Positions 15,618 to 35,665 of a DNA stretch of 38,264 nucleotides are shown here, piece by piece (position 1 is the stretch's first letter; every line of letters starts with the position of its first letter). The stretch covers positions 1 to 38,264 of the forward strand of contig JAFYUS010000001.1 of NCBI GenBank assembly GCA_017549505.1. Direction: 5' to 3'. The stretch comes from Bacteroidales bacterium. Its GTDB lineage: Bacteria > Bacteroidota > Bacteroidia > Bacteroidales > UBA932. The notes below the pieces were generated by a model. That model was not told where the DNA came from and ran no database searches. It saw only the letters and a program-made list of their open reading frames with translations. The position numbers and the translations under genes were made by a program.

Positions 15618-15660
15618 AACCACTAATTTTATTGTGTATGAAACGTCCTATACAAATTTG
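15608..15660 (-). promoter_or_regulatory. 5' leader hairpin covering the start codon of ompA paralog 2, with putative -7 box
   Basis: TATGAAACGTC (15637-15647) is the exact reverse complement of GACGTTTCATA (15608-15618). In mRNA the downstream arm contains the ATG and codons 2-3, so the 11-bp stem would hide the initiation site. An imperfect -7 box, CAAATTTG at 15660 to 15653, would start transcription near 15646, at the beginning of the upstream arm. Confidence 0.5.
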
Positions 15661-19992: not shown

Positions 19993-20023
19993 TTTGGTTT
20001 TTTATGAAAAATATCCAAATTTG
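19993..20023 (+). promoter_or_regulatory. Promoter of the DUF3575/DUF4493 surface operon
   Basis: TTTG at 19993-19996 and CAAATTTG at 20016-20023 have the standard 19-bp spacing of Bacteroidota promoters; the -7 element differs from TAnnTTTG only in its first base. The start would be near 20030, about 16 nt before the ATG at 20046. Confidence 0.5.
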
Positions 20024-20045: not shown

Positions 20046-21479
20046 ATGATAATGAAATACGTTAGAAGAGTACTCCTTATAGGGGTACTATGCGCTTTTC
20101 TGACGCCTCGTCATGCCTGTGCCCAGGCATATGTGAGGTATGCAGACCAGCACGAACTGACTTCCAGGACAGCACACGTGGACTCGGTTCTTCATTTTGT
20201 TCCCATGCCCAAGGGTGTGGTGAATCTCGATAATTATCCAAAGATCAATGTCGCAGCGCTTGAACTTTCCCGTATCCTTCAGCAGGGTGGGGAACTGCTT
20301 CAGGTGTGGGTGTGCGGTTCGGCATCTCCTGAAGGAGACTGTGATGAGAACTCCAGCCTGGCACGTGCCCGTGCCGAGGCTGGAGTGTCTTATTTCAAGT
20401 CTGTCGCCGATATCCCGGATTACAAGATCGTAAAGGAAAGCCACAACGAAGACTGGTATACTCTCTACCGTCTTGTCGAAGAATCTCAGATGCCATACCG
20501 TTATGATGCTCTTTTCATCATCAGGACCATGCAGGGTGAGGAACGTAAGACTGCCTTGAAGAAACTTGATGACGGCAGGGTGTGGGATTATATGGCCCGG
20601 GAGTTCTTTCCTCAGATAAGAGGCGTACGTTTTGCTGTATTCTGCAGGAAAGGACATGAACCTCAGAAGGAACATGTTAACGATACCGTATATGTAAGGG
20701 ATACCGTGGTGATAATGAAGGAAGTTTTCTATATGCAGAAGGATAATAGTCAACAGCCTGTTTCTCAATCTGTAAAGAAGATCAAGACTCGGGACGGATC
20801 AAGGCACGAAAGGAGTGCCGGGATCTGGGATTCTCCATGGCTTGCAGCCGTAAAGACTGATGTGGCAACAGATGTTCTTGCTCTTCCTCAGGTCGGATTC
20901 GAAATCCAGCTGAGTGACAGGTTCTCCTTTGAAACGATGGGATGGTATTCGGAATGGCCTTACATCAATCCATCCGAAGAACATAAGATATATGGATTCC
21001 GCCCGGAAATCAGATATTGGATGAATGGCGTGATGCGTAAAGGATTGTTCTTTGGCCTTCATTCCAATGTGACGTGGTATGCAATGATGGTGAATGACAG
21101 AGACTTTTATCAGAATGCGTCATTGTGTCGGGACAAGGGTTGCGCAGGACGCCATTTCTATGAATATTCATATCAGACGGAAGATGGAGCCAATGTGACA
21201 AACAGATATCACGATACTCCTGCATGGAGTACAGGACTTACTGTCGGTTATTCACTCCCTCTTGATAAAGGACAAAGGTGGGCGGTAGAGTTTGTCGGAG
21301 GTATCGGCTATGCCCGTTATGAACAGAACTGGTATCAGAAGAGTTCCCCTTGGACTCTGAAGACAGTCGAAGCACCTCAGGCGAGAGATTATTTCGGACT
21401 GACTCGTGCAAGTGTCAATCTGACATACCGTTTCTCAGTGCGCAGATATGAAAAGAATACGATCAATAATAATTTTTAA
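20046..21479 (+). CDS. OmpA-like domain / DUF3575 outer-membrane protein, first gene of the surface operon
   Basis: The 477-residue protein has a signal peptide (cleavage after HACA, residue 26). Residues about 45-120 look like an OmpA-type fold with VWVCGSASPEGDCDENSSLARARAEA, where N..LA..RA is the usual helix. After a linker with VNDTVYVRDTV, residues about 266-470 match DUF3575 (AAVKTDVATDVLALPQVGFEIQLSDRFSFETMGWYSEW; GFRPEIRYWM), predicted to be an outer-membrane barrel. DUF3575 proteins are commonly encoded beside type V fimbrial (FimA/Mfa1-type) genes in Bacteroidales. Here it precedes four surface lipoproteins and may anchor or organise them in the outer membrane. An in-frame ATG at 20052 is an alternative start. 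The GCC-rich segment at 20350-20386 can fold into a 15-bp hairpin. Confidence 0.75.
   Translation: MIMKYVRRVLLIGVLCAFLTPRHACAQAYVRYADQHELTSRTAHVDSVLHFVPMPKGVVNLDNYPKINVAALELSRILQQGGELLQVWVCGSASPEGDCDENSSLARARAEAGVSYFKSVADIPDYKIVKESHNEDWYTLYRLVEESQMPYRYDALFIIRTMQGEERKTALKKLDDGRVWDYMAREFFPQIRGVRFAVFCRKGHEPQKEHVNDTVYVRDTVVIMKEVFYMQKDNSQQPVSQSVKKIKTRDGSRHERSAGIWDSPWLAAVKTDVATDVLALPQVGFEIQLSDRFSFETMGWYSEWPYINPSEEHKIYGFRPEIRYWMNGVMRKGLFFGLHSNVTWYAMMVNDRDFYQNASLCRDKGCAGRHFYEYSYQTEDGANVTNRYHDTPAWSTGLTVGYSLPLDKGQRWAVEFVGGIGYARYEQNWYQKSSPWTLKTVEAPQARDYFGLTRASVNLTYRFSVRRYEKNTINNNF
20350..20386 (+). other. Large hairpin inside the DUF3575 coding sequence
   Basis: ACTCCAGCC (20350-20358) pairs with GGCTGGAGT (20378-20386), and inside it GGCACG (20360-20365) pairs with CGTGCC (20370-20375), loop TGCC. 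The total is 15 bp with a small internal loop. It encodes the RARAEA helix, so chance from codon choice is possible. Confidence 0.4.
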
Positions 21480-21489
21480 CCAAAACCAA

Positions 21490-23700
21490 ATGAGACGATC
21501 AGGATTTCTTATTCCTTGTTTCGCGATCTTGTTGGCTGCATGTAACGAGAGTGTCATCACCGATGTTCCGGTGGATGCCTCCGAGGCAGGAAAGGTCACT
21601 TTTACCCTTTCCGCAGACTTGCGCAATGATGTCGTGGACGTAAAGTCTTCTGCGGAAGAGATTTCCGTGGATGATTTCTGGGTTGAGATCTTCAACTCAA
21701 AGAAGATCAGGATCTTTTGCGAGAAATATGCAGACGCAAAGGATACGACTCTTTATGTGAATTCGGGAGATTACACGCTCCTCGCCACTTACGGAACCGA
21801 AAACAGCGTCGGTTTCGACAAGCCTTTCTATAAGGCTGAAGAACCATTTACAGTAGGGCCTCAGGAAACCAAGCCTCTTGCTGCCACTGCAACTCTTGCC
21901 AACGTCAAGGTGGCAGTCAACTTCGATGAAGATCTGGACAACAAGCTCTCCTATGAGCAGTATTGGGCTGTCGTCAGGAACAATGGAAAGAAGCTCCGTT
22001 TCAACCCTGCCGAGACCCGTGCCGGCTATATTCCTGCGGGAAATCTGGAGTTCGTGCTTGTAGTGAAGATCAACGGTGAGTATAAGCAGTATGTCCACCC
22101 CGCTGCGGAATATGCACCGAACGACTTCGTTACTTTCAATGTCAGCGCTCCTCTCATGGATGGAAATGTAGTCATCAAGGTGCTCATCGACAATACGGTG
22201 GAGATTGTGGAGGTCGATGAAATAGTTGTACCGATCGAGGATATGCTTCCTCTTGAAGAACCTGCCATTTATTCAGAAGGTTTCGATAATGACAATTCCA
22301 TCACTTTCGTGGATACGAAGGCACCGGTCAAGAACGAACTCTGGATCAGTGCCACAGCCGAAGGTGTGCTTTCATCGGCCGTTCTTTCCATCGACTGTCC
22401 TGATCTCGGCCTTCCCGCCGAGATCGACCTCGCGACAGCGGATGACGCTGTCGCCTCTGCATATGAGGCCAAGGGCATATGGTGGAAGTTCAATGCAGAC
22501 AGGACTTCTCTTTCCATCAGTCTCCTTGATGCATATGATGATCATATCTCCAAGCTCGGATATCGAGGCTATGACCATGATGCGGGCAGACCTCTGCCTG
22601 CGGCAGAAATCGGTCTGAAGATCGAGACCGCAGGCGGCGCAGCCAGGACTGCGGAGGAAAGCTATGCAATATATGTCGAGCCGAATGCTGCAAGAGGTTC
22701 TTTCTCATGGAATGACTATGATGTCTGGGCTACAAAGATCGTGAATCCTGTCCTGACTCTTGGAGAAGGCAAATATGACAAGACAAAGATACAGTACAGT
22801 ATGGACGGCCAGACGTGGGTTGATTTCCAGGATGTTACCTCTTCTGAATATTCTATGGGTACGGTCGAGGGACTCGATGCCGGTACTACATATTACCTTC
22901 GTGCCATTTACGACGGATGGCTTGAGGTGGCGGCTCCGGTAAGCTTTACTACAGAAGCGGCGCAGCAGGTGGGAAATGCCGGGTTTGAGGAATGGACGAC
23001 TGATTCCTGGACTTATGAACAATCTTCGCTTGGACGTGGTGAGAGTCCGATGAAGTGGTATCATCCTTGGGGAAATGAGGCGGATCAGTGGTGGGATACA
23101 AATGCCACGGTATCGATGAGGGATGATCTGACAATTGGATATACATATTTCAAATCATTCCCATTGGTACATTATTCGAACGATGCCAGAACAGGGTCAA
23201 GAAGTGCTCAACTTACTGTGGCAAATATAGGAAACTATAACAGCCTGGTTAGTACGAACGGCACCTGGTACGTAGGTGAGTTGTTTTCAGGAAGGGGAAA
23301 TGATGCTTCTTCCTGGGCAAAAGTGGCAGAGGGCAAACCTTTGTCTTCGAGACCTGCAGCATTGACTTTCTGGTATGAGTATGATGCATATACAGATACG
23401 GATATGTTCAGCGCGGAAATAATCATAAAAACCCAGGACGGAACAGTCCTGGCTTCAGGATACGGGACCTTCGGTGAGGGATCTGACTGGACACAGGCGA
23501 CTGTCGCTCTTCTGTACAATGTGACAGATAAGAAGGCAGATACCGTTCTTGTAAGGATTAATGCATCGACAGCATCTGACCATTCATGCAATAAAACCGG
23601 TACTTATCTTGAGATTGCCGGGTCGAAAAAAGAGTCAGATCCTTACCGGATAAAGTTGGGTGCGACTCTTCGCATAGATGATATAGAACTTGTATACTAA
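21490..23700 (+). CDS. DUF4493 surface lipoprotein with Fn3-like and divergent PCMD-like module
   Basis: The start at 21490 is chosen because MRRSGFLIPCFAILLAAC is a lipoprotein leader (Cys18, followed by NESVITD), 10 bp after the previous stop. The 736-residue protein reads as modules: DUF4493 at about 20-235, with NSGDYTLLATYG, FDKPFY and TLANVKVAVNFDEDL; a second beta-sandwich at about 255-398; an Fn3-like module at about 399-490 (IQYSMDGQTWVDF...LDAGTTYYLRAIYDG); and a C-terminal jelly-roll at about 497-736 (GNAGFEEWTTDSW ... LRIDDIELVY) resembling a divergent PCMD domain. It should be an outer-membrane-anchored, probably surface-exposed protein. Binding of carbohydrate or assembly with its operon partners is inference. 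The 3' part is visibly more AT-rich than the 5' part. Confidence 0.72.
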   Translation: MRRSGFLIPCFAILLAACNESVITDVPVDASEAGKVTFTLSADLRNDVVDVKSSAEEISVDDFWVEIFNSKKIRIFCEKYADAKDTTLYVNSGDYTLLATYGTENSVGFDKPFYKAEEPFTVGPQETKPLAATATLANVKVAVNFDEDLDNKLSYEQYWAVVRNNGKKLRFNPAETRAGYIPAGNLEFVLVVKINGEYKQYVHPAAEYAPNDFVTFNVSAPLMDGNVVIKVLIDNTVEIVEVDEIVVPIEDMLPLEEPAIYSEGFDNDNSITFVDTKAPVKNELWISATAEGVLSSAVLSIDCPDLGLPAEIDLATADDAVASAYEAKGIWWKFNADRTSLSISLLDAYDDHISKLGYRGYDHDAGRPLPAAEIGLKIETAGGAARTAEESYAIYVEPNAARGSFSWNDYDVWATKIVNPVLTLGEGKYDKTKIQYSMDGQTWVDFQDVTSSEYSMGTVEGLDAGTTYYLRAIYDGWLEVAAPVSFTTEAAQQVGNAGFEEWTTDSWTYEQSSLGRGESPMKWYHPWGNEADQWWDTNATVSMRDDLTIGYTYFKSFPLVHYSNDARTGSRSAQLTVANIGNYNSLVSTNGTWYVGELFSGRGNDASSWAKVAEGKPLSSRPAALTFWYEYDAYTDTDMFSAEIIIKTQDGTVLASGYGTFGEGSDWTQATVALLYNVTDKKADTVLVRINASTASDHSCNKTGTYLEIAGSKKESDPYRIKLGATLRIDDIELVY

Positions 23701-23714
23701 ACCATATTTATAAA

Positions 23715-25040
23715 ATGAAAAAGATATTCTACTCAATATTCGCGGCTGTGGCTATGTTTACGGCATGCAATGAAGAAGTGATCACTGACGGAACAGGATC
23801 GCTCAATCTCAAGATCGGCGAGGTCTCGGATAAATATATGACAAAGGCAGGTGCTATAGATACAGATGAATTCTATGTCACACTTACCGACTGGAGCGGT
23901 AATGCGGTCGAGAGTGACGGTGTGACATATCGGAACATCCTTTACAAGAATCTTCCTGACGAAATATCCGGTCTTCCTTCAGGACCTTACACCATCTCGG
24001 TTTTGTCGCATGAGGAGATTCCTGCAGCTTCCTTTGATACTCCTGTTTATGGAGGTTCGACAGATTTTACAGTGAAGACAGGTGCAACGACTCCTGTTAC
24101 TGTCAGATGTACAGTCCAGAATGTAAAGGTAACCATCAATCCTTCTGCCGGCTTCCTCAGCGAACTTACTTCCTATACCATTACCGTGACAAACGAGGAC
24201 GGCGGCAGCGTCCACTGGACTAATGACGCTGCGGTTACGGGAGTAAATGTGAGCACTGACCTTACTCTTCCGGCACATTTCTCGGTTTCCGCGCTCGATG
24301 TCAATGTTACAGGATACCGTAAGATCAACGGCGCGGAACTCAATCTTCAGGAGAATGCCGAGTGGAACGGAAAGATTGCTAATGTTGCTGCAGCCGACCA
24401 CCATATCATCAACATAGATGCACGGACAACAGGTGCTGCCGGCGGAGAGAACGGCATCACGATCACTGTTGACGGATCGCAGCTGAATGAGGTGGAGTCA
24501 AATCTTGATGTGCCGGGATTCGAGGATGTTCCTGTCGACGGACCGGACTGGGGTGAGAATGAGGAAGGAGGAGATGAAGAAGGTGGAGCTGAAACACCTG
24601 AGGTGGAAGGTCTTGAGTTGATATGGCCTGGCAACGAATCTTTTGAAAGGACTGAACTCAAGTCTGAAATGAGTGTAAACCTTACCATCAATGCTGTAAA
24701 TGGAATCAAGGAATTTGTAGTGTATGTGAACTCTCCTACAGTTGATTTTGTAACTGCTGTAGCTGCTATGGGTGCGGCTGGTGAGACAGAGAATGACGCT
24801 ATATTGGATTTTTCTGATGATATGGTTGTTGAAGGAATGTGTGCAATAGAACTTATTTCTGAATCGCCGATTGGCAAGACTACGGTTGATTTTCCTTTGT
24901 CAGGGCTTCTTCCGCTCATTATCGATGTGGGAAATCCGGAACCCGATACTGTACACACATTTACAATGTATCTTAAGGATATGAAGGATCAGGTACTTTC
25001 AATTCCTCTTGAATTTGTCTATATGCCTTCTGAGAACTAA
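23715..25040 (+). CDS. DUF4493 surface lipoprotein, short form without PCMD
   Basis: The 441-residue protein begins MKKIFYSIFAAVAMFTAC (lipid Cys18) followed by NEEVITD, almost the same post-cysteine sequence as the 21490 protein. DUF4493 spans about 19-225 (LPSGPYTISVLSH, ASFDTPVYGG, CTVQNVKVTINPS). A linker rich in Gly, Asp and Glu (about 268-292, GENEEGGDEEGG) leads to a final beta-sandwich (about 293-437, MSVNLTINAVNGIKEFVVYV) that corresponds to the middle module of the other two DUF4493 proteins. It lacks both Fn3 and the C-terminal jelly-roll, and the frame shows no sign of truncation. It may be a structural subunit where the others are tips or receptors; that is speculation. The gap to the upstream gene is 14 bp. 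Confidence 0.7.
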   Translation: MKKIFYSIFAAVAMFTACNEEVITDGTGSLNLKIGEVSDKYMTKAGAIDTDEFYVTLTDWSGNAVESDGVTYRNILYKNLPDEISGLPSGPYTISVLSHEEIPAASFDTPVYGGSTDFTVKTGATTPVTVRCTVQNVKVTINPSAGFLSELTSYTITVTNEDGGSVHWTNDAAVTGVNVSTDLTLPAHFSVSALDVNVTGYRKINGAELNLQENAEWNGKIANVAAADHHIINIDARTTGAAGGENGITITVDGSQLNEVESNLDVPGFEDVPVDGPDWGENEEGGDEEGGAETPEVEGLELIWPGNESFERTELKSEMSVNLTINAVNGIKEFVVYVNSPTVDFVTAVAAMGAAGETENDAILDFSDDMVVEGMCAIELISESPIGKTTVDFPLSGLLPLIIDVGNPEPDTVHTFTMYLKDMKDQVLSIPLEFVYMPSEN

Positions 25041-25058
25041 TTCCCAAACAGAAACGAC

Positions 25059-27521
25059 ATGATTAAGAATATACTTAGAGAACTGATGCTCATCTTGACC
25101 CTTGCCAGCCTGGCAGCCTGCAATGAGGTTGTGACGGTAGGTGACGGGTACGGCCGCATCGGTCTGAACCTTGGGTGGGACACTTCCCTTGCCACCAAGG
25201 CAGACGGTGATGCAGTTGAGGTCGGAGATGATACTCAGGTGACGGTTTCCGTCTGCGATATGGACGGGAATCCGGTGGCCGGACCTACAACATATGTGTA
25301 TAGTGCCTTGAAGGAGGCTGAGTTTGAGGTGCCGGTCGGAAGATATACAGTGAAAGCTTCAACCGGGTCAAACCATCAGGCTGCCTGGGATTCGCCATTC
25401 TACTATGGTGAGGATGAAGTTACGGTATACGCCGAAAGAGATAATCAAGCAGAGGTAATATGTACTCTTGCGAATGTAAAGGTTACTGTATCTTTCGATG
25501 AGAGGTTCGCCCAGTACTGCACTTCATATAGCGTTACCGTTGATAACGGAGCTGGAGAAGGACTTACCTTCGGAAGCAGAAACGGTAAACTGGATGCAGA
25601 GGGATATTTTGCAGTTACAGGTACTTTGAATTGGAATCTTGTGCTGATCAACAATGACGGGAAGTCATATGTTGCCAGCGGAACTATAGATGGCGTAGAA
25701 GCCCAGCAGCATTATCCGTTGTCATTCTCCCTTTCTGAAATCGTTGAGGATGAGACCGGAGCTTCCGTATTCAAGGTTACTGTAGATGATTCGATAAACG
25801 AGAAGGAGTTTGATGCAGTACTTGATTTCAGCGAGTCTGGAGATTATGAGGTTACTGTATCCGGTTTCGAATATGTTGCCGGAGGTATCGCTGTCCCGAT
25901 GGGAGATCAGAATGTGAAGACGATAACCACATCGATGACCAATGGTATCTCTGCAGCGTTTGTATGTGTCAACGGTGTTTGGTATGAACTCTCAAATGCA
26001 GACCAGGGCACTATAGACAGGCTTTCTGCTCTTGGTATCGATGCTGCTTCGGTTGCTTACGGCGCTTCTTCATTCACTGTGGATGTTACTGACTATCTGG
26101 CATCGATCGGAGATTTCGGATTCTATCCGGTGATTGTTTCTGCATACGATGTAAAGGGTCTCAAGGCCGAGACAAGATTTGACTTCGAGATCATTTCTAA
26201 TGTCGATGCCTCCGCTGTGTCTGCCGAACCTTCTGCTTATTCTGCTGTGATCACTGCGAAGTGGTATGCGAACGAAATACCTGACGGTCTTGGTCTCGAA
26301 TATAAGCCTGTTTCTTCTGCCGACTGGACTTCTGTCGATGCTTCCGCTATATCTTACGATGCGGCTCAGAAGAAATTCTCTGCAGAAATCACAGGCCTGG
26401 CAGCCGGTACTCAATACAGTTTCCGTCCATACTCTGCAAAAGACAGGGATAATATCAAGACTATGGAGTTCTACACCAATTTCACGGCTCCGGTATCTGC
26501 CAAGCCGTGGGCTAAGTTTGCTGTAGTGACCGGTAAATGGTTGACTGATACCGAGCCTGAGGGACTGACATTCAAATATAGGGAATACGGTACCACAGGA
26601 TGGATAGAAGCCGATCCTGCCACAGTGAGACTTTCTGTTGATATCACAGATAAAACATTTACAGGTGATATTACAGGTCTGAATCCAAAGTCTACATACG
26701 AATTCAGAGCAGTTTCTAAGTTGGATGCAGATACTAATCTTCAGATGGGTGAATTTACTACTGCAGGTATGAGCACATTATATAATCTAAACTTTGATGA
26801 TTGGTGTGAGGTGTCTTCAGTATGGTATCCATATTCATCTGATGCGGCAGACCCTACATGGGATACAGCAAACGGAGGCGTCAAGCTTCTGAAGGAGACT
26901 CTGACTACACCTGAATATGATTTCAAGGTTGACAAGTCAGGTAATAAGGCGTCTGCAAGACTTGAAAGCAAGGCACTGACAATGTTTGCGGCTGGAAATA
27001 TATATACAGGAAAATTCATAAAGGCAAAAGTGATAGGTGGTGTCGGTGCAGAACTTGATTGGGGTGTTCCATTTACCTCAAAACCAGTCGCATTGAGGGG
27101 TTATTATTCATATTCTCCAGCTCCTATATCCGTTGTAGGAAATGGAGCGAATGTTTCTAAAGGAGATCCGGATAGATGTCAGATTCAGATTTTCCTGACA
27201 GATTGGGAAGGAGATAATGCTCCATTCCGAATCAATACAGCGACAGGTAAGTTTGTGGAGATGGACGCTGATTATATCATAGCTGCCGGAATGAAAGAAT
27301 CTGCAGAAGACAATAATGGAAGATGGGAGAAGTTTACGATACCAGTAGAATATCGTGATGATCGTACTCCGACTTATATCGTTGTTGCAGCCGCTTCTTC
27401 GTATCTTGGAGATTATTTTACCGGAGGTGACGGATCTACTTTGTTTGTCGATGAGTTCGAACTTATTTACGACATCGGCGATCTTACCGATGAGGAAGCC
27501 GCCAAGGTTAACTACAGATAG
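25059..27521 (+). CDS. DUF4493 surface lipoprotein with two Fn3-like modules and PCMD domain
   Basis: The 820-residue protein starts with MIKNILRELMLILTLASLAAC (lipid Cys21, then NEVVTVGD). Modules: DUF4493 at about 22-245 (VPVGRYTVKASTG, AAWDSPFYYGEDEVTV, CTLANVKVTVSFDERF), a beta-sandwich at about 250-380 (ITTSMTNGISAAFVCVNG), two Fn3-like repeats at about 381-475 and 478-568 (AVITAKWYANEIPDGLGLEYK / AVVTGKWLTDTEPEGLTFKYR; ITGLAAGTQYSF / ITGLNPKSTYEF), and a PCMD domain at about 575-815 (NFDDWCEVSSVWYPYS, FAAGNIYTGKF, GVGAELDWG, SYLGDYFTGG, LFVDEFELIYD). PCMD stands for putative carbohydrate metabolism domain, whose activity is unproven. It is expected on the cell surface. The gene follows the previous one by 18 bp and precedes the OM barrel gene by 5 bp. 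Confidence 0.75.
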   Translation: MIKNILRELMLILTLASLAACNEVVTVGDGYGRIGLNLGWDTSLATKADGDAVEVGDDTQVTVSVCDMDGNPVAGPTTYVYSALKEAEFEVPVGRYTVKASTGSNHQAAWDSPFYYGEDEVTVYAERDNQAEVICTLANVKVTVSFDERFAQYCTSYSVTVDNGAGEGLTFGSRNGKLDAEGYFAVTGTLNWNLVLINNDGKSYVASGTIDGVEAQQHYPLSFSLSEIVEDETGASVFKVTVDDSINEKEFDAVLDFSESGDYEVTVSGFEYVAGGIAVPMGDQNVKTITTSMTNGISAAFVCVNGVWYELSNADQGTIDRLSALGIDAASVAYGASSFTVDVTDYLASIGDFGFYPVIVSAYDVKGLKAETRFDFEIISNVDASAVSAEPSAYSAVITAKWYANEIPDGLGLEYKPVSSADWTSVDASAISYDAAQKKFSAEITGLAAGTQYSFRPYSAKDRDNIKTMEFYTNFTAPVSAKPWAKFAVVTGKWLTDTEPEGLTFKYREYGTTGWIEADPATVRLSVDITDKTFTGDITGLNPKSTYEFRAVSKLDADTNLQMGEFTTAGMSTLYNLNFDDWCEVSSVWYPYSSDAADPTWDTANGGVKLLKETLTTPEYDFKVDKSGNKASARLESKALTMFAAGNIYTGKFIKAKVIGGVGAELDWGVPFTSKPVALRGYYSYSPAPISVVGNGANVSKGDPDRCQIQIFLTDWEGDNAPFRINTATGKFVEMDADYIIAAGMKESAEDNNGRWEKFTIPVEYRDDRTPTYIVVAAASSYLGDYFTGGDGSTLFVDEFELIYDIGDLTDEEAAKVNYR

Positions 27522-27526
27522 TTCTG

Positions 27527-28435
27527 ATGAGGAAGACTTTATTCATAGTATTGTCGGTATTCAATGCATTCATGCTTGGTGCGCGCCCCGCAGGGGCTGA
27601 CACCATGCATGAATGCAGGGACACGATCCGGGTTGCAGATACCGTATGGGTATCTGCAACGGAGCGTGCTCCGCTGACAGCGGAGATTCCGGATGTCATC
27701 CTCGATGATACATTCAACAGAGGTATCGGCAAGGCCACTGCTCTCTTTGTTCCTAAGGGTACGGTATCATTCGGGCTGACGGCATTGTATAATTCGTATG
27801 ATCTGGGATCTGCTGAGGATGATGCCGGTTACAAGATGTTTCTATCTCTTTTGGACGGCGTTTATGGAAATATGACTTCATGCGGCATAGCGCCTGCTGT
27901 TTCATACTTCATCGCTGACAATACCTCGGTCGGTCTGCGCTTCGATTATTCCAAGTCTGTTCTCGGGCTTGGAAGCGCAAGTATTGCTCTCGGTGATCTG
28001 ATGTCATTGGATATCAATGATGTGAATTATCTCAAGCAGTCGTATTCCGGCTCATTGACATTGAGACATTATATGTCCATAGCAGACAGCAGACGTTTTG
28101 CAATCTTCGTGGAAGGAAGAGGAACTCTGGGATATGCCCAGTCTATGAACTATCAGAGGGAAGGAGATGACAAATACGGAACGTACCAGGATATCTACAA
28201 GGCTTCATTGAGTCTGGTACCTGGGGTCGTGTGCTTCATGATGGACAACGCTGCGTTCGAAGTGTCTGTAGGAGTGCTGGGCTTTGATACTCAGAAAGTC
28301 AAGCAGCTCACCAACCAGGTGGAATACAGCGAGATGAAAAGCAGCGGTGCTAACTTCAAGATCAATCTGCTTTCCGTCAATTTCGGTATGTCGTTCTATA
28401 TTTATCCGAAGAAGGCAAGGAGGCACACGTCATGA
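27527..28435 (+). CDS. Outer-membrane beta-barrel protein of the surface operon
   Basis: The 302-residue protein has a signal peptide (MRKTLFIVLSVFNAFMLGARPAGA, cleavage near residue 24-25). The segment DTMHECRDTIRVADTVWVSATE is a short N-terminal linker, followed by the barrel (GKATALFVPKGTVSFGLTALYNSY, APAVSYFIADNTSVGLRFDYSKS, SLTLRHYMSIADSRRFAIFVEGRGTLGYAQ, FKINLLSVNFGMSFYIYP), with alternating hydrophobic and polar strands. No known enzyme motif is seen; a role as channel or anchor for the lipoproteins is inferred from the operon. The gene overlaps the next by the ATGA at 28432-28435, which indicates translational coupling. The DNA encoding residues 13-53 contains four successive hairpins, which is unusual for a coding sequence. 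Confidence 0.7.
   Translation: MRKTLFIVLSVFNAFMLGARPAGADTMHECRDTIRVADTVWVSATERAPLTAEIPDVILDDTFNRGIGKATALFVPKGTVSFGLTALYNSYDLGSAEDDAGYKMFLSLLDGVYGNMTSCGIAPAVSYFIADNTSVGLRFDYSKSVLGLGSASIALGDLMSLDINDVNYLKQSYSGSLTLRHYMSIADSRRFAIFVEGRGTLGYAQSMNYQREGDDKYGTYQDIYKASLSLVPGVVCFMMDNAAFEVSVGVLGFDTQKVKQLTNQVEYSEMKSSGANFKINLLSVNFGMSFYIYPKKARRHTS
27565..27683 (+). repeat. Cluster of four adjacent inverted repeats inside a coding sequence
   Basis: Hairpin 1: TGCATTCATGC (27565-27575) with GCATGAATGCA (27607-27617), continued after one mismatch by TGGTG/CACCA and capped by GCCCC/GGGGC (27585-27597). Hairpin 2: GTTGCAGATACC (27632-27643) with GGTATCTGCAAC (27649-27660), a perfect 12-bp stem. Hairpin 3: GGAGC/GCTCC at 27661-27672. 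Hairpin 4: CCGCT/AGCGG at 27671-27683. They cover the end of the signal peptide and the N-terminal linker. Confidence 0.65.
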
Positions 28436-30030
28436 AGGTGATGAGATATCTTGCATGGATGCTGGCCTTTCTGACGGTTACATCCTGTCTTTTCGACAAT
28501 GACCTGTCATATCCAAATATCTCTGCCGACATCTTATCCTTTCAGGTAGAGGGACAGACATCGGTAAGGATCGACAATGAACTTCGTGAGATTCATGTCG
28601 AACTTTCAGAGTCTGCGGATCCTGCACATGTCAAGGTGCTGGATATTACATTAAGCGAAGGGGCGAGACTGACTGAAGGAGTGCCTCAATACCTTGACCT
28701 GACCGCTCCTGTCGCTTTGACTGTCAAGACATACGGAGAGACGGTGTGGACCATATATGCGACCCAACCGGTAATAAGATACATCAATGTCGAAAATCAG
28801 GTCGGCGAGGCCGAATTCGATGTGAAGAACAGGTCTGCTGTCGTATATGTGTCATCCAGCCAGTCGCTGAGCGCTGTCACTATTCTTGATATGAAACTTG
28901 AGAGGGAGGGATCTGAAGTAGTTTCCACTACTGCAACCATCACTGTTGGCAAGCAGACTGTGGAACAGACGCTTGAGTGTGTGTTTCCTATGACTCTTGA
29001 GTGCGTCATGCTCAGAAAGTTTACAGTTCTTTCCGAAGGAGAGACTGTAGAATGGATCGTAAGGGTTCTGAACAAGGAAGTTGCTGTCGAAGTCACATCG
29101 GTGAATGCATGGGCAAGGCATGCATATGTGACCGCTCTTTTCGACGGAAAGGGAGATCCTTATTTCGAATACAGACGTTCAGGAGAAGATCTTTGGACCA
29201 AAGTCATGGATGCTGCAGTCACAGGAACTGGCGTTTCAGCTGATATCGGAGACCTGGTTCCGGAGACGTCATATGAGGTGCGTCTTGTCAACGGAGAAAT
29301 GATGAGCGATCCGGAAACCTTCGTTACAGAAGAGGCTTCTCAGGTTCCTAACATGAGTTTTGACGATTGGTATTCCCCTGATCCGTCGTCTGCAAAGGCG
29401 GTCTGGTATCCTTACGCCATCGGAGGAATCCATGCTTGGGATTCTGCGAATCCCGGTGCTGCGGCGTTCATAGGATCGTCAACAGTTCCGGAAGAAAGTT
29501 TCGTGGTAAAGGGCATGGCCGCAAAGCTAGAAAGCAAATATGCAGTCATAGCCTTCGCTGCAGGAAACATCTATACAGGAAAGTTCGGAAAGATCGCCGG
29601 AGTCGGCGCTGAACTTGATTGGGGATATGAATTCTCTTCACGTCCTTCTGCACTGAAGGGTTATTATTCATATGCACCGAAGCCTATAGACAAGGCGGAT
29701 AAGGCCAAGGAGGAACTTATAGGACAGATGGACAAGTGCCAGATACAGGTGATTCTTGCTGACTGGGATGCTCCATTCCGTATCAATACGACCAAAGGAC
29801 ATTTTGTCGACATAGAAAAGGATGAACATATCATCGCTTTCGGCAGAATCGAGACCGATCAGGCAACGGGAGGGGAGTACAAGGAATTCACGATCGATCT
29901 GGAATACCGTACAAAGACACGAAAGCCGAAATACGTAGTCATTTCGGCTTGCGCCTCGTACCTCGGTGACTATTTCACCGGAGGTGTAGGCAGTACGTTG
30001 TATGTCGATGAATTTGAATTCGTATATTGA
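28432..30030 (+). CDS. PCMD-domain surface lipoprotein, last gene of the operon
   Basis: The 532-residue protein begins MKVMRYLAWMLAFLTVTSC (lipid Cys19, then LFDNDLSYP). The N-terminal part (about 20-215) is two beta-rich repeats (ILSFQVEGQTSVRIDNELREIHVEL; FDVKNRSAVVYVSSSQSLSAVTI) that resemble the DUF5018-like repeats of Bacteroidota surface proteins, in place of DUF4493. An Fn3-like module (about 218-303, YFEYRRSGEDLWTKV...PETSYEVRLVNGE) and a PCMD domain (about 306-532) follow. The PCMD shares FAAGNIYTGKF, GVGAELDWG, APFRINT, SYLGDYFTGG and VDEFEFVY with the 25059 protein, so the two are clear homologs. It is translationally coupled to the OM barrel gene and ends 5 bp before the convergent exporter gene. 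Surface display is inferred; the ligand is unknown. Confidence 0.73.
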   Translation: MKVMRYLAWMLAFLTVTSCLFDNDLSYPNISADILSFQVEGQTSVRIDNELREIHVELSESADPAHVKVLDITLSEGARLTEGVPQYLDLTAPVALTVKTYGETVWTIYATQPVIRYINVENQVGEAEFDVKNRSAVVYVSSSQSLSAVTILDMKLEREGSEVVSTTATITVGKQTVEQTLECVFPMTLECVMLRKFTVLSEGETVEWIVRVLNKEVAVEVTSVNAWARHAYVTALFDGKGDPYFEYRRSGEDLWTKVMDAAVTGTGVSADIGDLVPETSYEVRLVNGEMMSDPETFVTEEASQVPNMSFDDWYSPDPSSAKAVWYPYAIGGIHAWDSANPGAAAFIGSSTVPEESFVVKGMAAKLESKYAVIAFAAGNIYTGKFGKIAGVGAELDWGYEFSSRPSALKGYYSYAPKPIDKADKAKEELIGQMDKCQIQVILADWDAPFRINTTKGHFVDIEKDEHIIAFGRIETDQATGGEYKEFTIDLEYRTKTRKPKYVVISACASYLGDYFTGGVGSTLYVDEFEFVY

Positions 30031-30035
30031 TGCTT

Positions 30036-31232
30036 CTACATCAGCAGCATGGCTCCGTAGCCTGCTGCCAATGCGATGATGCAGTTTATGAGCTTCGCCC
30101 AGGCGAAGCTCTTTCTGCTTTCTGCCAGAAGCGGAATGGAGGCATGGCCGTCCTGAGAGATCGAACTGGCCAGAAGTACAGGGAACGGCACTACGCCGGT
30201 CGCAAAGAGCGTCACGAATATCATGTGAGGGCCCGATTCAGGGATTATTCCGATCAATGTGGCCAGAAGGATCATCAAGGCTGTATTGTCGCTGATCCAA
30301 TGGTCGATTTCTACATATTGAAGGGCAAAGCCAAGAACAAGAAGCACTCCGAATGTCCATGCAAATATCGTCGGCAGATGCTTCTTTACGATGTGGTCCC
30401 ATAGATGCCCTTCAACGAAATGGTCTGAAGCGAAAAGCAGGACAAAAAGAACGATGACGCTCAGGCCGGCAAAGAGGACGTTCATCCAGTCCTCGCTCAG
30501 AAGGTCGATTCCATGGCTGGAGATGTCTTCTTCATGATGATGGTGTCCATGTTCGCATGCCTCTGTATGTACATGGCCCTCATGACCATGGTCATGTCCT
30601 GCATGCGCAGAATGGTCGTGGCCGAGACGGCCGGTGGCCAATGCGGCAATGAATACCGCCAGTCCTGCAAACATCAGCATCCTCTTCCATCCGTAGTGAC
30701 GTTTCTGATCTTTTCTGTCTTTGTCTTCAGCCCCTGATCCTGCAGTATCGTGGTGGCATTCAGGTGTATGTACGACGTACCCGTCATGACATTCGGACTC
30801 TGCTCCGCAGTCCGAATGGTCGTGCTTGTCGCACTTCTTTGAATGAATCCTGTCATGGACGAAATCAACTCCGACTCCTACCAGAATCGCCAGGACAAAC
30901 AGTACTGCAAACAGAATAAGAGCCTGCTCGGGAATCATGGCCAGCATGACGAAAGCCTCGTCGCCCGATGATGCGATCATCATCGCGACGAGTGCGCCGA
31001 AGCTGAACATACGGTGTGTATAGAGTGATACCGTGGCGAAACCGCCCATGCAGCCGGGTATGGAACCCAGCAGAGAAGCGATCACGACCTGTCCGAACTT
31101 CGTCTTCTTCAATCCCTTGAACACCAGACCTTTCGACTCGATGTTAAGCGACTCGATCATCATCATCATCACTACCACCAGTCCTGTGATAAGGACCGCA
31201 TTTCTCAGCGCTTCAACAACTACATGCCACAT
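30036..31232 (-). CDS. His-rich putative 10-TM heavy-metal exporter (ArsP_2/PF11449-type permease)
   Basis: The 398-residue protein has about ten hydrophobic segments. Two loops are very rich in histidine: residues about 126-162 (HDHSDCGAES..., HHD) and 204-240 (HDHSAHAGHDHGHEG, HGHHHHEED), typical metal-sensing or -buffering loops. The first half contains SLLGSIPGCMGGFATVSLYTH (about 53-73) and the second half the related IGIIPESGPHMIFVTLFATG (about 336-355), which points to two repeated halves. This matches the Bacteroidota family called putative heavy-metal exporter, sometimes arsenic or manganese transporter in databases. The metal is not known. It probably forms an operon with the DUF1573 gene upstream, separated by a 128-bp structured spacer. 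Confidence 0.8.
   Translation of the reverse strand: MWHVVVEALRNAVLITGLVVVMMMMIESLNIESKGLVFKGLKKTKFGQVVIASLLGSIPGCMGGFATVSLYTHRMFSFGALVAMMIASSGDEAFVMLAMIPEQALILFAVLFVLAILVGVGVDFVHDRIHSKKCDKHDHSDCGAESECHDGYVVHTPECHHDTAGSGAEDKDRKDQKRHYGWKRMLMFAGLAVFIAALATGRLGHDHSAHAGHDHGHEGHVHTEACEHGHHHHEEDISSHGIDLLSEDWMNVLFAGLSVIVLFVLLFASDHFVEGHLWDHIVKKHLPTIFAWTFGVLLVLGFALQYVEIDHWISDNTALMILLATLIGIIPESGPHMIFVTLFATGVVPFPVLLASSISQDGHASIPLLAESRKSFAWAKLINCIIALAAGYGAMLLM
30090..30111 (+). terminator. Terminator-like hairpin for the surface operon, inside the exporter gene
   Basis: GAGCTTCGCC (30090-30099) is the exact reverse complement of GGCGAAGCTC (30102-30111), giving a GC-rich 9-10-bp stem. It is followed on the plus strand by TTTCTGCTTTC, and lies 60-80 bp beyond the operon's last stop codon (30030). 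Confidence 0.5.
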
Positions 31233-32869: not shown

Positions 32870-35665
32870 TTAGTTCTTAGGAGCTGATACCACCTGTACC
32901 ATATTGTTCTGTGCCAGGATTGCCTGGAGAACAGTCTTGATGTCTTCTGCAGTAAGAGAATTTACAGCAGCTTCGTACTCTGCATCTGAGTCGATGCCGA
33001 ATTCATACCAGTTGTCGAGTGCGCCCATCCAGTAAGAGTTGCTGATGCGTGACTCCGGTATGTTCTTCTTGAGGTTTTCGACAGCCTTGCTCATCTGCTC
33101 TTCTGTAGGGCCGTTCTGTGCAAGATCGTTCAGACCTTTCACTGCGAGTTCTATAAGCTTAGGAGCGGCTTCAGGATTTGTGTCGAACATTACCTGGATG
33201 ACAGCTCTTTCGATAGGGAGTCTCTGACCTGCCATTGCTGTTCCTACACCGTATGTGCCACCCTCATCCTCGCGGATAGTCTTGGTATAGATCATATCCA
33301 GAACATAGTTGGCTGCTTTAAGAGCTACTTCTGTCTTGGTGTCGATAGGCATGTAAGCTGAGTAAACCTGGAATACTGTAGACTTTGGTGTCGCCATCAC
33401 AAGCTCAACTGTCTTGTCCACGTCTCCCTTTGCAAAATTGATGAGGTTCGCCTCATTGATCTTGCGCGCCTTCTTGTTCTTTGCTATCGATCCGATGTAT
33501 TTTTCTACCATAGGCTTGATTGCCTCAGGGTCCACATTACCCACGATGGTAAGTCTTGCGCCGCCTGCATTCTTGAATAGTTCACGGTAAACTCTCTCGA
33601 TGGTAGCGAGATTTGCCTTCTCGACCACTTCCTCGTTGAGGTCGACAACGCGTGGGTTGTTGTCGTAGAGAACCTTGTTCATTTCCTGCTGGAACTGATA
33701 GTCAGGGTTTGAGAGGATGTTAGGGAGAAGGGCCTTGATCTGCTGGATACCTGGTTCGTACTCATTCTGGTCGAAGCGTGGGTCTGCGAAGTAAAGGTAT
33801 GTGATCTGGAGTGCGGTTTCGATGTCCTTTGGAGCGCACTGTCCCTGTACTCCGTGACGTGTGTTGCTGATATACGGGCTTACAGAAAGGTTCTTTCCTG
33901 CGAGCATCTTAGGAACCTGTGTGCCTGAGAACTTGGATATACCTGAGTTGTTGAGGAAGAGTGTCCAGATGTTATCTTCGAATGATACGAGATCCTCGGT
34001 AGCAACGGCGTTCTTACCTCCTACGAGCTCGATGTTGAAGAGAACCTGGTCCTTCTTGTGCTGGGTAGGGAGGACTACAACCTTGACTCCGTTCTTGAGA
34101 GTCCACTCAGTGGCGCCGAATGCAGTCTCCTTGCTTCCCTTTACTGCTGAACCCTTGAGAGCATCTGCATTAAGGAAAGGCTCGTTGAGGTTTTCCTCTG
34201 CGTTTGCCTGAAGTTCAGCCTCGGATACTGCAGCAAGAACCCCTGTGAGTTCAGCTTCTGTAGGATTTGCAAGGCCTTCCTTCTCAGGACCCTGATATGT
34301 GATGATGATGTTCTCTGAAGGGAGAAGCTGAGCCACAACCTGATTGAGTACCTGTGCATTGATCTGGGCGCAGATGGCCTGGACGATCTGGAGCTCGGTC
34401 TCAGGAGTCATGTATGCCTCGTTCTCGAAGAAATTGTAAAGGAGAGGACGTACAAGTTCTGAATTCTTGCGTGTAGGAGCTGCCTCGACAGCCTTCTCAT
34501 ATGCACTGATGATGTTGTCCTTTGCACGCTGAACCTCACCGTCGTTGAATCCGAATCTCTTCATCTTCTCGATTTCTGTCATCAGAGCTGTGAATGCCTC
34601 TACAGAAGCTCCGTCCTTGAAGAGTACTGCAGCATTGTATGCCTCACATACGTTGCAGAGGTCTCTTGTGAACAGACCGGCAGCAAAGAACGGTGCGTTC
34701 GGTGCAGCTGCGATGTCGTTGAATCTCTCATCCATGATGTTTGAGATGATCGAGAGGAGAAGGTCATTCATGTATGCTACATCGGTATTCTGGAACTGAA
34801 CAGGGATAGGGTCATGTTTCCAGAGGATGTCGATACGTGAGTTCTGAGCCTCGGGGTCTGTGATGATGCCTACTATCGGCTCTGCGTTTGCAGGGAGTGC
34901 AGGCTCGTTCTTTACTGCAACTTCTGCTGCAGGGATGCTGCCGAAGAGGTCTTTGATCTTCTGCTCCACCTTGTCTACGTCAACATCTCCTACTACGATA
35001 ACAGCCTGATTGTGTGGCTGATACCACTTCTTGTAGAAGTTTGTAAGACTTTCGTACTTGAAAGTCTTGAGCTGCTCTTCGCCTCCGATAAGGGTTCTGC
35101 GTGCGTAGTGGGTGTCTCCGTAAAGGTAAGGGAGTGACTTCTCGAACATTCTCCAGCTGGCGTCGCTTCTCTGTCTCTTCTCCTCAAGGATGACGCCTCT
35201 TTCGGCGTCGATCTCTGCAGGATTGCAGGTCACGAAGTTTGAGTAATCATGGAGAACGAGAAGGCATGAGTCGATGATGGTCTCTCGTACGACAGGGATG
35301 TTGTTGAGCATATACTGTGTCTGCTCGAATCCGGTCGATGCATTGATGTTTCTTCCGAATTCAGCTCCGATGCTCTGAAGATACTCGAGGAGAGCCTTGC
35401 CCGGGAAGTTCTTTGTACCGTTGAAACACATATGCTCGAGGAAGTGTGCAAGACCGTCCTGGTCATCTTCTTCCTGATATGCTCCCACATTTGTGGCAAG
35501 ATAGAATTCTGCTCTCTGAGCAGGCTGTTCATTGTGGCGGATGTAATAAGTCAGTCCGTTTTCCAGTTTTCCTACCCTTACTTCAGGGTCGTTTGGAAGG
35601 GGATTCTGTCCGAATGCAACCGCTGCGGCGAATATCGCCGCAATGAAAATGAATAAACGTTTCAT
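32870..35665 (-). CDS. M16-family (insulinase/pitrilysin-like) zinc metallopeptidase
   Basis: The 931-residue protein has a signal peptide (MKRLFIFIAAIFAAAVAFGQ), so it acts in the periplasm or outside. The inverted zinc motif HFLEH is at residues 74-78, and the third ligand Glu155 (AERGVILEEKRQR) lies 76 residues after His78, exactly as in the HxxEHx76E pattern. It is a two-half enzyme: the N-terminal half (about 25-480) is catalytic; the C-terminal half (about 510-925) is the inactive partner with the conserved R-x-Y region near TIREDEGGTYGVGTAM. It probably degrades peptides or processes small proteins. It is transcribed from a -7 box divergently from a LysR-type gene, which may regulate it. 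Bacteroidota often carry several such enzymes of unknown substrate. Confidence 0.92.
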   Translation of the reverse strand: MKRLFIFIAAIFAAAVAFGQNPLPNDPEVRVGKLENGLTYYIRHNEQPAQRAEFYLATNVGAYQEEDDQDGLAHFLEHMCFNGTKNFPGKALLEYLQSIGAEFGRNINASTGFEQTQYMLNNIPVVRETIIDSCLLVLHDYSNFVTCNPAEIDAERGVILEEKRQRSDASWRMFEKSLPYLYGDTHYARRTLIGGEEQLKTFKYESLTNFYKKWYQPHNQAVIVVGDVDVDKVEQKIKDLFGSIPAAEVAVKNEPALPANAEPIVGIITDPEAQNSRIDILWKHDPIPVQFQNTDVAYMNDLLLSIISNIMDERFNDIAAAPNAPFFAAGLFTRDLCNVCEAYNAAVLFKDGASVEAFTALMTEIEKMKRFGFNDGEVQRAKDNIISAYEKAVEAAPTRKNSELVRPLLYNFFENEAYMTPETELQIVQAICAQINAQVLNQVVAQLLPSENIIITYQGPEKEGLANPTEAELTGVLAAVSEAELQANAEENLNEPFLNADALKGSAVKGSKETAFGATEWTLKNGVKVVVLPTQHKKDQVLFNIELVGGKNAVATEDLVSFEDNIWTLFLNNSGISKFSGTQVPKMLAGKNLSVSPYISNTRHGVQGQCAPKDIETALQITYLYFADPRFDQNEYEPGIQQIKALLPNILSNPDYQFQQEMNKVLYDNNPRVVDLNEEVVEKANLATIERVYRELFKNAGGARLTIVGNVDPEAIKPMVEKYIGSIAKNKKARKINEANLINFAKGDVDKTVELVMATPKSTVFQVYSAYMPIDTKTEVALKAANYVLDMIYTKTIREDEGGTYGVGTAMAGQRLPIERAVIQVMFDTNPEAAPKLIELAVKGLNDLAQNGPTEEQMSKAVENLKKNIPESRISNSYWMGALDNWYEFGIDSDAEYEAAVNSLTAEDIKTVLQAILAQNNMVQVVSAPKN

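What the first reader, a model, noticed from the sequence alone, without database searches (positions are those of the whole stretch)
20046..30030. Six-gene surface operon built from DUF3575, DUF4493, Fn3-like and PCMD modules
Six plus-strand genes follow one promoter with gaps of 10, 14, 18, 5 and -4 bp: an OmpA-like/DUF3575 barrel protein, three DUF4493 lipoproteins, a 302-residue OM barrel and a PCMD lipoprotein. The three DUF4493 proteins share the post-cysteine sequence CNE.V and the LANVKV-like core. Known: DUF3575 proteins occur with type V fimbriae, and the DUF4493 and PCMD domains have no proven function. Inference: these form a cell-surface complex or fimbria-like display system, with the two barrel proteins as anchors. 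No classical FimA/Mfa1 subunit is present, so it is not a standard fimbrial locus.
Basis: partly seen in the sequence, partly recalled or inferred. Interest (0 to 1): 0.7.

Follow-up and report, generated by a model that had tools for sequence, protein, structure and literature searches.

The report
Likely fimbria-like glycan-binding surface operon
A conserved gut-bacterial operon appears to build a short pilus-like surface fibre with sugar-binding ends on an outer-membrane barrel base, linking a protein domain of unknown function (DUF4493) to a known family of pili.

Summary
The six genes, their coordinates and gaps are as reported. The operon is real and widespread: 28 of 295 genomes sampled across the order, in 16 families, have a strong match to barrel E, and in 27 of the 28 the PCMD lipoprotein F lies next to it. 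The commonest order is DUF4493, DUF4493, DUF4493/PCMD, E, F.
Three results point to a type V pilus-like system. (1) DUF4493 is a remote relative of the Mfa2/FimB pilus-anchor family: hhalign score 48.5, against at most 25.8 in 200 column shuffles. (2) 96% of 334 DUF4493 lipoproteins carry a Lys/Arg some 25-35 residues after the lipidated cysteine, where FimA-type pilins carry theirs; Mfa2 anchors, SusE and F mostly lack the motif. (3) Relatives encode a fimbrillin-like first gene, and DUF3575 (gene A) clusters with fimbrial genes.
E-F also occurs without DUF4493 genes beside it, so it is the core. PCMD has lost BT2081's proposed catalytic Asp259.
Best reading (0.5): processed DUF4493 subunits form a short glycan-binding fibre on an E-F base.

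The parts
19993..20023 (+). Candidate promoter TTTG-N19-CAAATTTG
   Evidence: Read from sequence; consensus TTTG / TAnnTTTG recalled, one mismatch; no transcript data. The sigma-70 scan found no excess over shuffles (15 against 16.7).
20046..21479 (+). Gene A: OmpA-like half plus DUF3575 barrel domain (20847-21434), 477 aa; alternative ATG at 20052
   Evidence: PF12099 E=1.3e-23; an A gene leads the operon in 15 of 125 E-bearing loci.
21490..23700 (+). Gene B: lipoprotein, DUF4493 (21598-22227) plus weak PCMD, 736 aa; lipid Cys codon 21541-21543, conserved Lys codon 21643-21645
   Evidence: PF14900 E=1.9e-32, PCMD 32 bits against cut-off 28; positions.
23715..25040 (+). Gene C: lipoprotein, DUF4493 (23790-24515) plus unassigned C-terminal part, 441 aa; Cys 23766-23768, Lys 23844-23846
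   Evidence: PF14900 E=3.7e-38; 68 sequences aligned; positions.
25059..27521 (+). Gene D: lipoprotein, DUF4493 (25146-25820), Fn3-like repeats, PCMD (26790-27467), 820 aa; Cys 25119-25121, Lys 25197-25199
   Evidence: PF14900 E=7e-43, PF13201 E=1.4e-41, PF16656 E=1.9e-10 with two stretches; positions.
27527..28435 (+). Gene E: outer-membrane beta-barrel family without a Pfam name, 302 aa
   Evidence: 17 of 77 relatives match OMP_b-brl, best 3.4e-6; 140 of 143 distinct members have a signal-peptide-like start by a loose pattern; strong match in 28 of 295 order genomes.
28432..30030 (+). Gene F: lipoprotein, Ig-like and Fn3-like N-terminal part plus PCMD (29356-30021), 532 aa; Cys codon 28486-28488; family lacks the DUF4493-type Lys/Arg site
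   Evidence: PF13201 E=1e-41; PDB matches 4jrl, 4het, 3hbz, 3s30; overlaps E by 4 bp; site statistics.
30090..30111 (+). Candidate terminator hairpin after F, inside the 3' end of the convergent gene
   Evidence: 9 pairs, 6 G-C, T-rich tail; the scan found 12 sites in the region against 7.1 expected by chance, so weak.

Best explanation
The operon encodes a type V pilus-like surface fibre. B, C and D are made as outer-membrane lipoproteins and moved to the surface (inferred from lipobox and post-cysteine residues). A trypsin- or clostripain-like surface protease cuts each after the conserved Lys/Arg, 34, 26 and 26 residues after the lipidated cysteine, removing lipid and first strand (inferred from the site). 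The opened DUF4493 groove then accepts a strand from the next subunit (inferred from homology; not shown). D and B carry PCMD, D also Fn3-like parts, so they would be ligand-binding end pieces and C a connecting piece (inferred). F lacks the site, so it would keep its lipid and form the base together with barrel E, its constant partner. A is an optional OmpA/DUF3575 accessory of a kind shared with ordinary fimbrial loci. PCMD probably binds glycans and does not cut them.
For: DUF4493 profile (120 rows) against Mfa2/FimB profile (32 rows): probability 89%, E=2e-6, score 48.5; 200 column shuffles gave at most 25.8 and the reversed profile 16.5. 5 of 68 C proteins hit Pfam Mfa2 directly, best 2.7e-4. 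Lys/Arg column in 96% of 334 distinct DUF4493 lipoproteins (K 240, R 79), usually followed by Ala or Ser. Alignment-free motif at residues 15-45 after Cys: 90-99% in four DUF4493 classes (n=103, 94, 67, 81), 84% in Mfa_like_1 (n=25), 81% in the FimA family (n=27), but 22% in Mfa2 anchors (n=32), 22% in SusE (n=23), 32% in F (n=107); shuffles 19-31%, not run for FimA. Mfa_like_1-related first gene in relatives: PF13149 over cut-off in 4 of 12 scanned, profile match probability 97%. DUF3575 near fimbrial markers 56 of 119 against about 4.7 expected. E followed directly by F in 72 of 74 and 49 of 51 E-bearing loci. PCMD: Asp259 of BT2081 replaced in 71 of 71 parsed F and 89 of 90 parsed D; Asp338 kept in 92 of 99 and 94 of 96, pocket-floor positions 202 and 206 mostly aromatic. 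Literature: PMC12632263 section 14, passages of PMC5954841, passages and two sections of PMC2954218.
Against: DUF4493 against the FimA family is only slightly above null (25.1 against at most 19.8, probability 10%) and against Mfa_like_1 nil. The alignment to Mfa2 spans 126 columns at 11% identity and rose from 25% to 89% probability only when the Mfa2 set grew from 8 to 32. F's N-terminal profile also scores 37.2 against Mfa2, but over the signal peptide. No PF08842 anchor over cut-off lies in the operon. In the FimA set the motif is also common at residues 75-105 (44%). E-F persists without operon-type DUF4493 genes beside it in several genomes, so its function cannot be only to anchor that fibre. 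Besides Asp259, the pocket residue Tyr261, strictly conserved among BT2081 homologs, is mostly replaced here (Tyr in 17 of 71 F and 14 of 90 D), which weakens the glycan-binding inference. The Lys/Arg site might be structural.
Confidence: 0.5

Rival explanations
1. A non-polymerising glycan-binding complex. F is a surface glycan-binding lipoprotein sitting on barrel E, and the DUF4493/PCMD lipoproteins are further binding proteins that stay lipid-anchored around it.
For: E-F occurs without DUF4493 genes beside it in several genomes, some nested in full-operon clades. The first PCMD structure has a conserved putative carbohydrate pocket (passages of PMC2954218). F's first 100 residues weakly match PDB 8a9y chain T, a 'DUF4960' protein (E=0.006; that this belongs to a SusCD glycan-uptake complex is recalled). 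Three of the six proteins carry PCMD.
Against: Does not explain the pilin-type Lys/Arg site in DUF4493 and its absence in F, the Mfa2 relation or the Mfa_like_1 and DUF3575 company. No ORF longer than 931 aa in the window and no SusC/SusD family in the 10 flanking genes scanned.
Confidence: 0.25
2. The Lys/Arg site is for release: a clostripain-like protease sheds the DUF4493 proteins from the surface as secreted or vesicle proteins, without polymerisation.
For: [quoted passage not shown] The site is conserved in 96% of 334.
Against: The site lies just after a conserved strand-like stretch, as in FimA-family and Mfa_like_1 proteins; simple shedding would not need a fimbrillin-type domain or the constant E-F neighbour.
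Confidence: 0.1
3. E is a dedicated outer-membrane translocator that moves its partner lipoprotein F (and PCMD-bearing D and B) to the surface.
For: E and F overlap or nearly abut (median distance 0 bp, 30 of 121 at exactly -4) and stay together where the rest is missing. PMC12632263 says the exporter of surface lipoproteins is undescribed (passage).
Against: Only 28 of 295 sampled genomes have strong E matches, while the same passage says most Bacteroidales lipoproteins are surface-exposed, so E is not a general exporter. No PDB relative by sequence, and the Pfam matches are generic barrel families.
Confidence: 0.1

Closest known systems
Type V pili of Bacteroidota (FimA/Mfa1 with FimB/Mfa2 anchor)
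   Same: Lipoprotein subunits, remote homology of DUF4493 to the Mfa2/FimB family, conserved Lys/Arg after a first strand-like stretch, subunits with an extra C-terminal domain that could bind ligand, DUF3575 companion gene.
   Different: No PF06321, PF08842 or PF13149 match over cut-off in the six window proteins; all three candidate subunits are DUF4493 proteins, two of them with PCMD; a constant barrel E plus lipoprotein F.
PCMD protein BT2081 (PDB 3hbz) and relatives in polysaccharide-utilisation loci
   Same: Jelly-roll PCMD with aromatic pocket floor; Asp338 and (by eye in the window alignments) Asp351 equivalents kept.
   Different: Asp259 replaced, mostly by Gln or Ser, and Tyr261 mostly replaced; attached to DUF4493 or paired with barrel E; no SusC/SusD in the flanking genes scanned.
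Canonical type V locus in the same genome, contig C26 (L308)
   Same: DUF3575 gene ahead of the subunit genes; large multi-domain last subunits.
   Different: Has a Fimbrillin_C subunit, a true Mfa2 anchor (E=4.2e-59) and a Mfa_like_1 protein (E=5.7e-10). E has a single match in this genome, the one in the window. L308 was not searched with the F model.

Membership tests
Type V pilus | Subunits exported as outer-membrane lipoproteins | tested here: met
   Lipobox found in 253 of 268 DUF4493, 111 of 114 DUF4493/PCMD and 116 of 124 F proteins, not deduplicated. Sequence signal only.
Type V pilus | Fimbrillin-superfamily domain | tested here: met
   Only at profile level: DUF4493 against Mfa2 score 48.5, null at most 25.8; FimA weak, Mfa_like_1 nil.
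Type V pilus | Arg/Lys processing site after the first strand in polymerising subunits | tested here: met
   96% of 334; same motif in 81% of 27 FimA-family and 84% of 25 Mfa_like_1 lipoproteins. Cleavage itself not tested.
Type V pilus | A lipid-retaining anchor of the Mfa2/FimB family in the locus | tested here: not met
   No PF08842 match over cut-off in the six proteins. F lacks the site and could play the role, but is another family.
Type V pilus | C-terminal donor strand and strand exchange | not testable with these tools
   Structure prediction switched off.
Type V pilus | Filaments on cells | not testable with these tools
   Needs microscopy.
Polysaccharide-utilisation locus glycan-binding set | SusC/SusD pair alongside | tested here: not met
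   No such family in 10 flanking genes scanned; no ORF over 931 aa in the window. Genes before 13.1 kb were not scanned with Pfam.
PCMD glycoside hydrolase (hypothesis for BT2081) | Catalytic pair Asp259 and Asp338 | tested here: not met
   Asp259 replaced in 71 of 71 parsed F and 89 of 90 parsed D proteins; 42 of 113 F and 16 of 106 D could not be parsed by the pattern.
Outer-membrane beta-barrel (E) | Match to a known barrel family, signal peptide, hydrophobic C-terminus | tested here: inconclusive
   For: 17 of 77 hit OMP_b-brl, signal-like start 140 of 143, hydrophobic last residue 86 of 143, alternation score reached by 3 of 1000 shuffles. Against: the DUF4493 domain scores as well on alternation (0 of 1000), the strand count is not above shuffles, and the window E itself has no Pfam hit.

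The most novel reading that the evidence does not exclude
This is a distinct class of Bacteroidales surface fibre: DUF4493 subunits, related to pilus anchors but carrying the cutting site of pilins, are assembled with glycan-binding PCMD ends on a dedicated outer-membrane barrel-lipoprotein platform (E-F), a type V-like system with its own membrane platform.
Probability: 0.3. Interest if true: 0.8.

Novelty: new variant of a known kind. Interest (0 to 1): 0.56.

Why it matters
No paper in the open library searched holds the name DUF4493 (most subscription journals are not in it). Tying DUF4493 to the type V pilus superfamily gives testable functions to the more than 300 distinct lipoproteins seen here alone, and points to a conserved, unnamed barrel-lipoprotein pair (E-F) as a possible platform. 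The predicted Lys/Arg site makes the central claim checkable by one substitution.

Tried and rejected
PDB sequence searches with the C and E alignments and with B found no convincing relative. A sigma-70 promoter scan gave no excess. The count of amphipathic strands in E did not exceed shuffles (14 against mean 12.6; 152 of 500 as many). DUF4493 against Mfa_like_1 profiles: no relation. A first Mfa2 profile of only 8 sequences gave 25% probability; enlarging it to 32 raised it to 89%. A PUL role: the roughly 1055-residue gene after F in some relatives was judged by eye from its first residues only and looks like a multi-spanning membrane protein, not SusC. Four unlabelled genes of about 650 residues ahead of DUF4493 genes (L097, L112, L118, L119) had no Pfam hit. 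A hydrolase role for PCMD was rejected on Asp259 loss.
Full report
Observation. The six genes are present as described, with gaps of 10, 14, 18, 5 and -4 bp. Pfam gives DUF3575 in A, DUF4493 in B, C and D, and PCMD in B (weak), D and F; E has no family. NCBIfam gives one match far below its cut-off. The operon starts divergently from a gyrase-B/ParE-like gene and ends convergently with an ArsP_2 exporter gene.

Conservation. In the window's genome and 100 relatives, E matches 33 of 101 and DUF4493 58 of 101. Gene maps of 40 stretches and 97 more show the recurring order DUF4493, DUF4493, DUF4493/PCMD, E, (second E), F. The gene after E is F in 72 of 74 E-bearing loci from the PCMD-anchored search (77 loci, 3 without E) and in 49 of 51 from the stretches chosen by E or DUF4493 (60 loci, 9 without E). 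No locus repeats within a group, but the two groups share some contigs, so totals over both (125) count some twice. The four exceptions are L139 (next ORF a truncated, F-like one), L152 (rearranged), L072 (weak E match) and L174 (next gene without PCMD). The 77 loci contain a DUF4493/PCMD-like match by construction and are the best 80 of 261 matches; E was not part of that query. E and F abut or overlap (median 0 bp, 114 of 121 between -60 and +30).

Order-wide sample. In 295 genomes, strong E matches (E below 1e-20) occur in 28 genomes of 16 families, DUF4493 in 34 genomes and PCMD in 138; 25 genomes have both E and DUF4493, and all 28 have PCMD (counted by hand). F-type PCMD sits next to E in 27 of 28 (maps; for six genomes by the coordinates; exception G330). 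A further 45 genomes have only weaker E matches, which I left out of these counts.

Core and cargo. E-F occurs without DUF4493 genes beside it in several genomes (for example L043, L046, L055, L065-L067, L169). On a quick tree of 140 E rows this state (20 rows) needs at least 13 changes, which fits repeated loss of the DUF4493 genes. Some of the 20 labels are imperfect: L167 has its DUF4493 genes on another contig, L150 has an interposed ORF, L152 is rearranged, and L174 lacks F. A leads the operon in 15 of 125 loci; a fimbrillin-like gene M in 11, and two more have a DUF4493 gene before a weakly matching M. In other relatives single-domain DUF4493 genes follow F in tandem (L098, L117, L123, L140).

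What DUF4493 is. Its profile aligns to the Mfa2/FimB anchor family over 126 columns: probability 89%, E=2e-6, score 48.5; trimmed profile 91%, 49.3 over 95 columns. Column shuffles of the trimmed profile (200) reach at most 25.8, the reversed one 16.5. Other profiles against the same Mfa2 profile: SusE 24.7, PCMD 12.6, E 26.8, A 25.6, Mfa_like_1 31.8; F's N-terminal part 37.2 and M 41.9, the first over the signal peptide and the second starting in it. Positive control Mfa2 against FimA: 57.0. Against FimA DUF4493 scores 25.1 (200 shuffles, at most 19.8), and against Mfa_like_1 nothing. 5 of 68 C proteins hit Pfam Mfa2. I read DUF4493 as a divergent branch of the fimbrillin superfamily.

Processing site. 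Among 334 distinct DUF4493 proteins with a recognised lipobox (those without, and ORFs cut at locus ends, were dropped first), one alignment column, the 26th filled column from the cysteine, is Lys or Arg in 96% (K 240, R 79), usually followed by Ala or Ser, right after a conserved strand-like stretch. Without alignment, and with a slightly looser lipobox rule, the motif occurs at residues 15-45 in 90-99% of four DUF4493 classes (345 proteins), but in 11-33% in later windows and 26-31% in shuffles; median distance from Cys 28-32. Fimbrillin families show it (Mfa_like_1 84% of 25, M 79% of 14, FimA family 81% of 27 of 30 taken, though that set also has 44% at residues 75-105); Mfa2 anchors (22% of 32), SusE (22% of 23) and F (32% of 107) are near their shuffles. 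In the window the Lys is 34, 26 and 26 residues after Cys in B, C and D. Papers say that type V subunits start as lipoproteins, lose their N-terminus to a surface protease, and that the anchor keeps its lipid (PMC12632263 section 14 and figure legend; passages of PMC5954841, and PMC7616799; passages of PMC11316588 also seen). Lys/Arg then Asp/Glu is common right after the cysteine of DUF4493 proteins and resembles the export signal K-(D/E)2 quoted in PMC12632263.

Companions. A table passage of PMC10434189 lists B. thetaiotaomicron DUF3575 (BT_4234) and an Mfa1 fimbrilin C-terminal protein (BT_4227) close together in numbering. The same genome has a normal type V locus on contig C26 with DUF3575, Fimbrillin_C, Mfa2 and Mfa_like_1, so this operon is an addition and not a replacement.

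PCMD. BT2081, the first PCMD structure, is a jelly roll with a deep putative carbohydrate pocket and proposed catalytic residues Asp259 and Asp338 (PMC2954218: outline, passages, introduction and section 3.6). In D and F, Asp259 is replaced (71 of 71 parsed F, 89 of 90 parsed D), Asp338 is kept (92 of 99 F, 94 of 96 D) and positions 202 and 206 stay mostly aromatic, but Tyr261 is mostly replaced (Tyr in 17 of 71 F and 14 of 90 D). The positions come from text patterns, checked against the PDB alignment for window D and F. Binding without cutting is the likelier role, with an altered pocket.

E. No structure relative by sequence. 17 of 77 members match OMP_b-brl and 11 Toluene_X at E up to 0.1; 140 of 143 have a signal-like start. 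The tree shows two old paralog groups where a locus has two E genes.

Mechanism. Shown: gene order, lipoboxes, remote homology at profile level, conserved basic site, PCMD residue changes. Inferred: surface exposure, cleavage, strand exchange, E-F as base, glycan binding. Novelty: no paper in the library holds DUF4493 or PF14900, PF13201 or 'PCMD domain'; most subscription journals are not in the library.

Noticed in passing
window 32870-35665 (-): Secreted-looking M16 (insulinase family) peptidase two genes after the operon; genes of about 930 residues lie at a similar place in several relatives (judged by length only).
   Followed up: no
L080:7283-8392; own genome contig C69:4426-4716 (cut by the contig end): Many genomes of the genus carry one separate DUF4493 gene of about 360-400 residues; in L080, the one scanned, it is fused to DUF6359. 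Not part of this operon.
   Followed up: partly
L098, L117, L123, L140: Downstream of F, tandem single-domain DUF4493 lipoproteins ending with a larger one of about 680-700 residues, as if stalk and end subunits were added.
   Followed up: no
L056, L155-L157, L164-L172, L176, L177: Many families have two E genes in a row, which fall into separate clades on a quick tree.
   Followed up: partly
window 25059-27521; L081, L082: D shows two hits to the F N-terminal (Fn3-like) model in the window and its nearest relatives but one in most other loci; the 12-row alignment shows the extra repeat in the window only.
   Followed up: no
window 30036-31232 (-): Convergent ArsP_2 heavy-metal exporter with a long His-rich stretch.
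   Followed up: no
window 13112-14233 and 14430-15623 (-): Two neighbouring OmpA-family proteins upstream of the operon.
   Followed up: no
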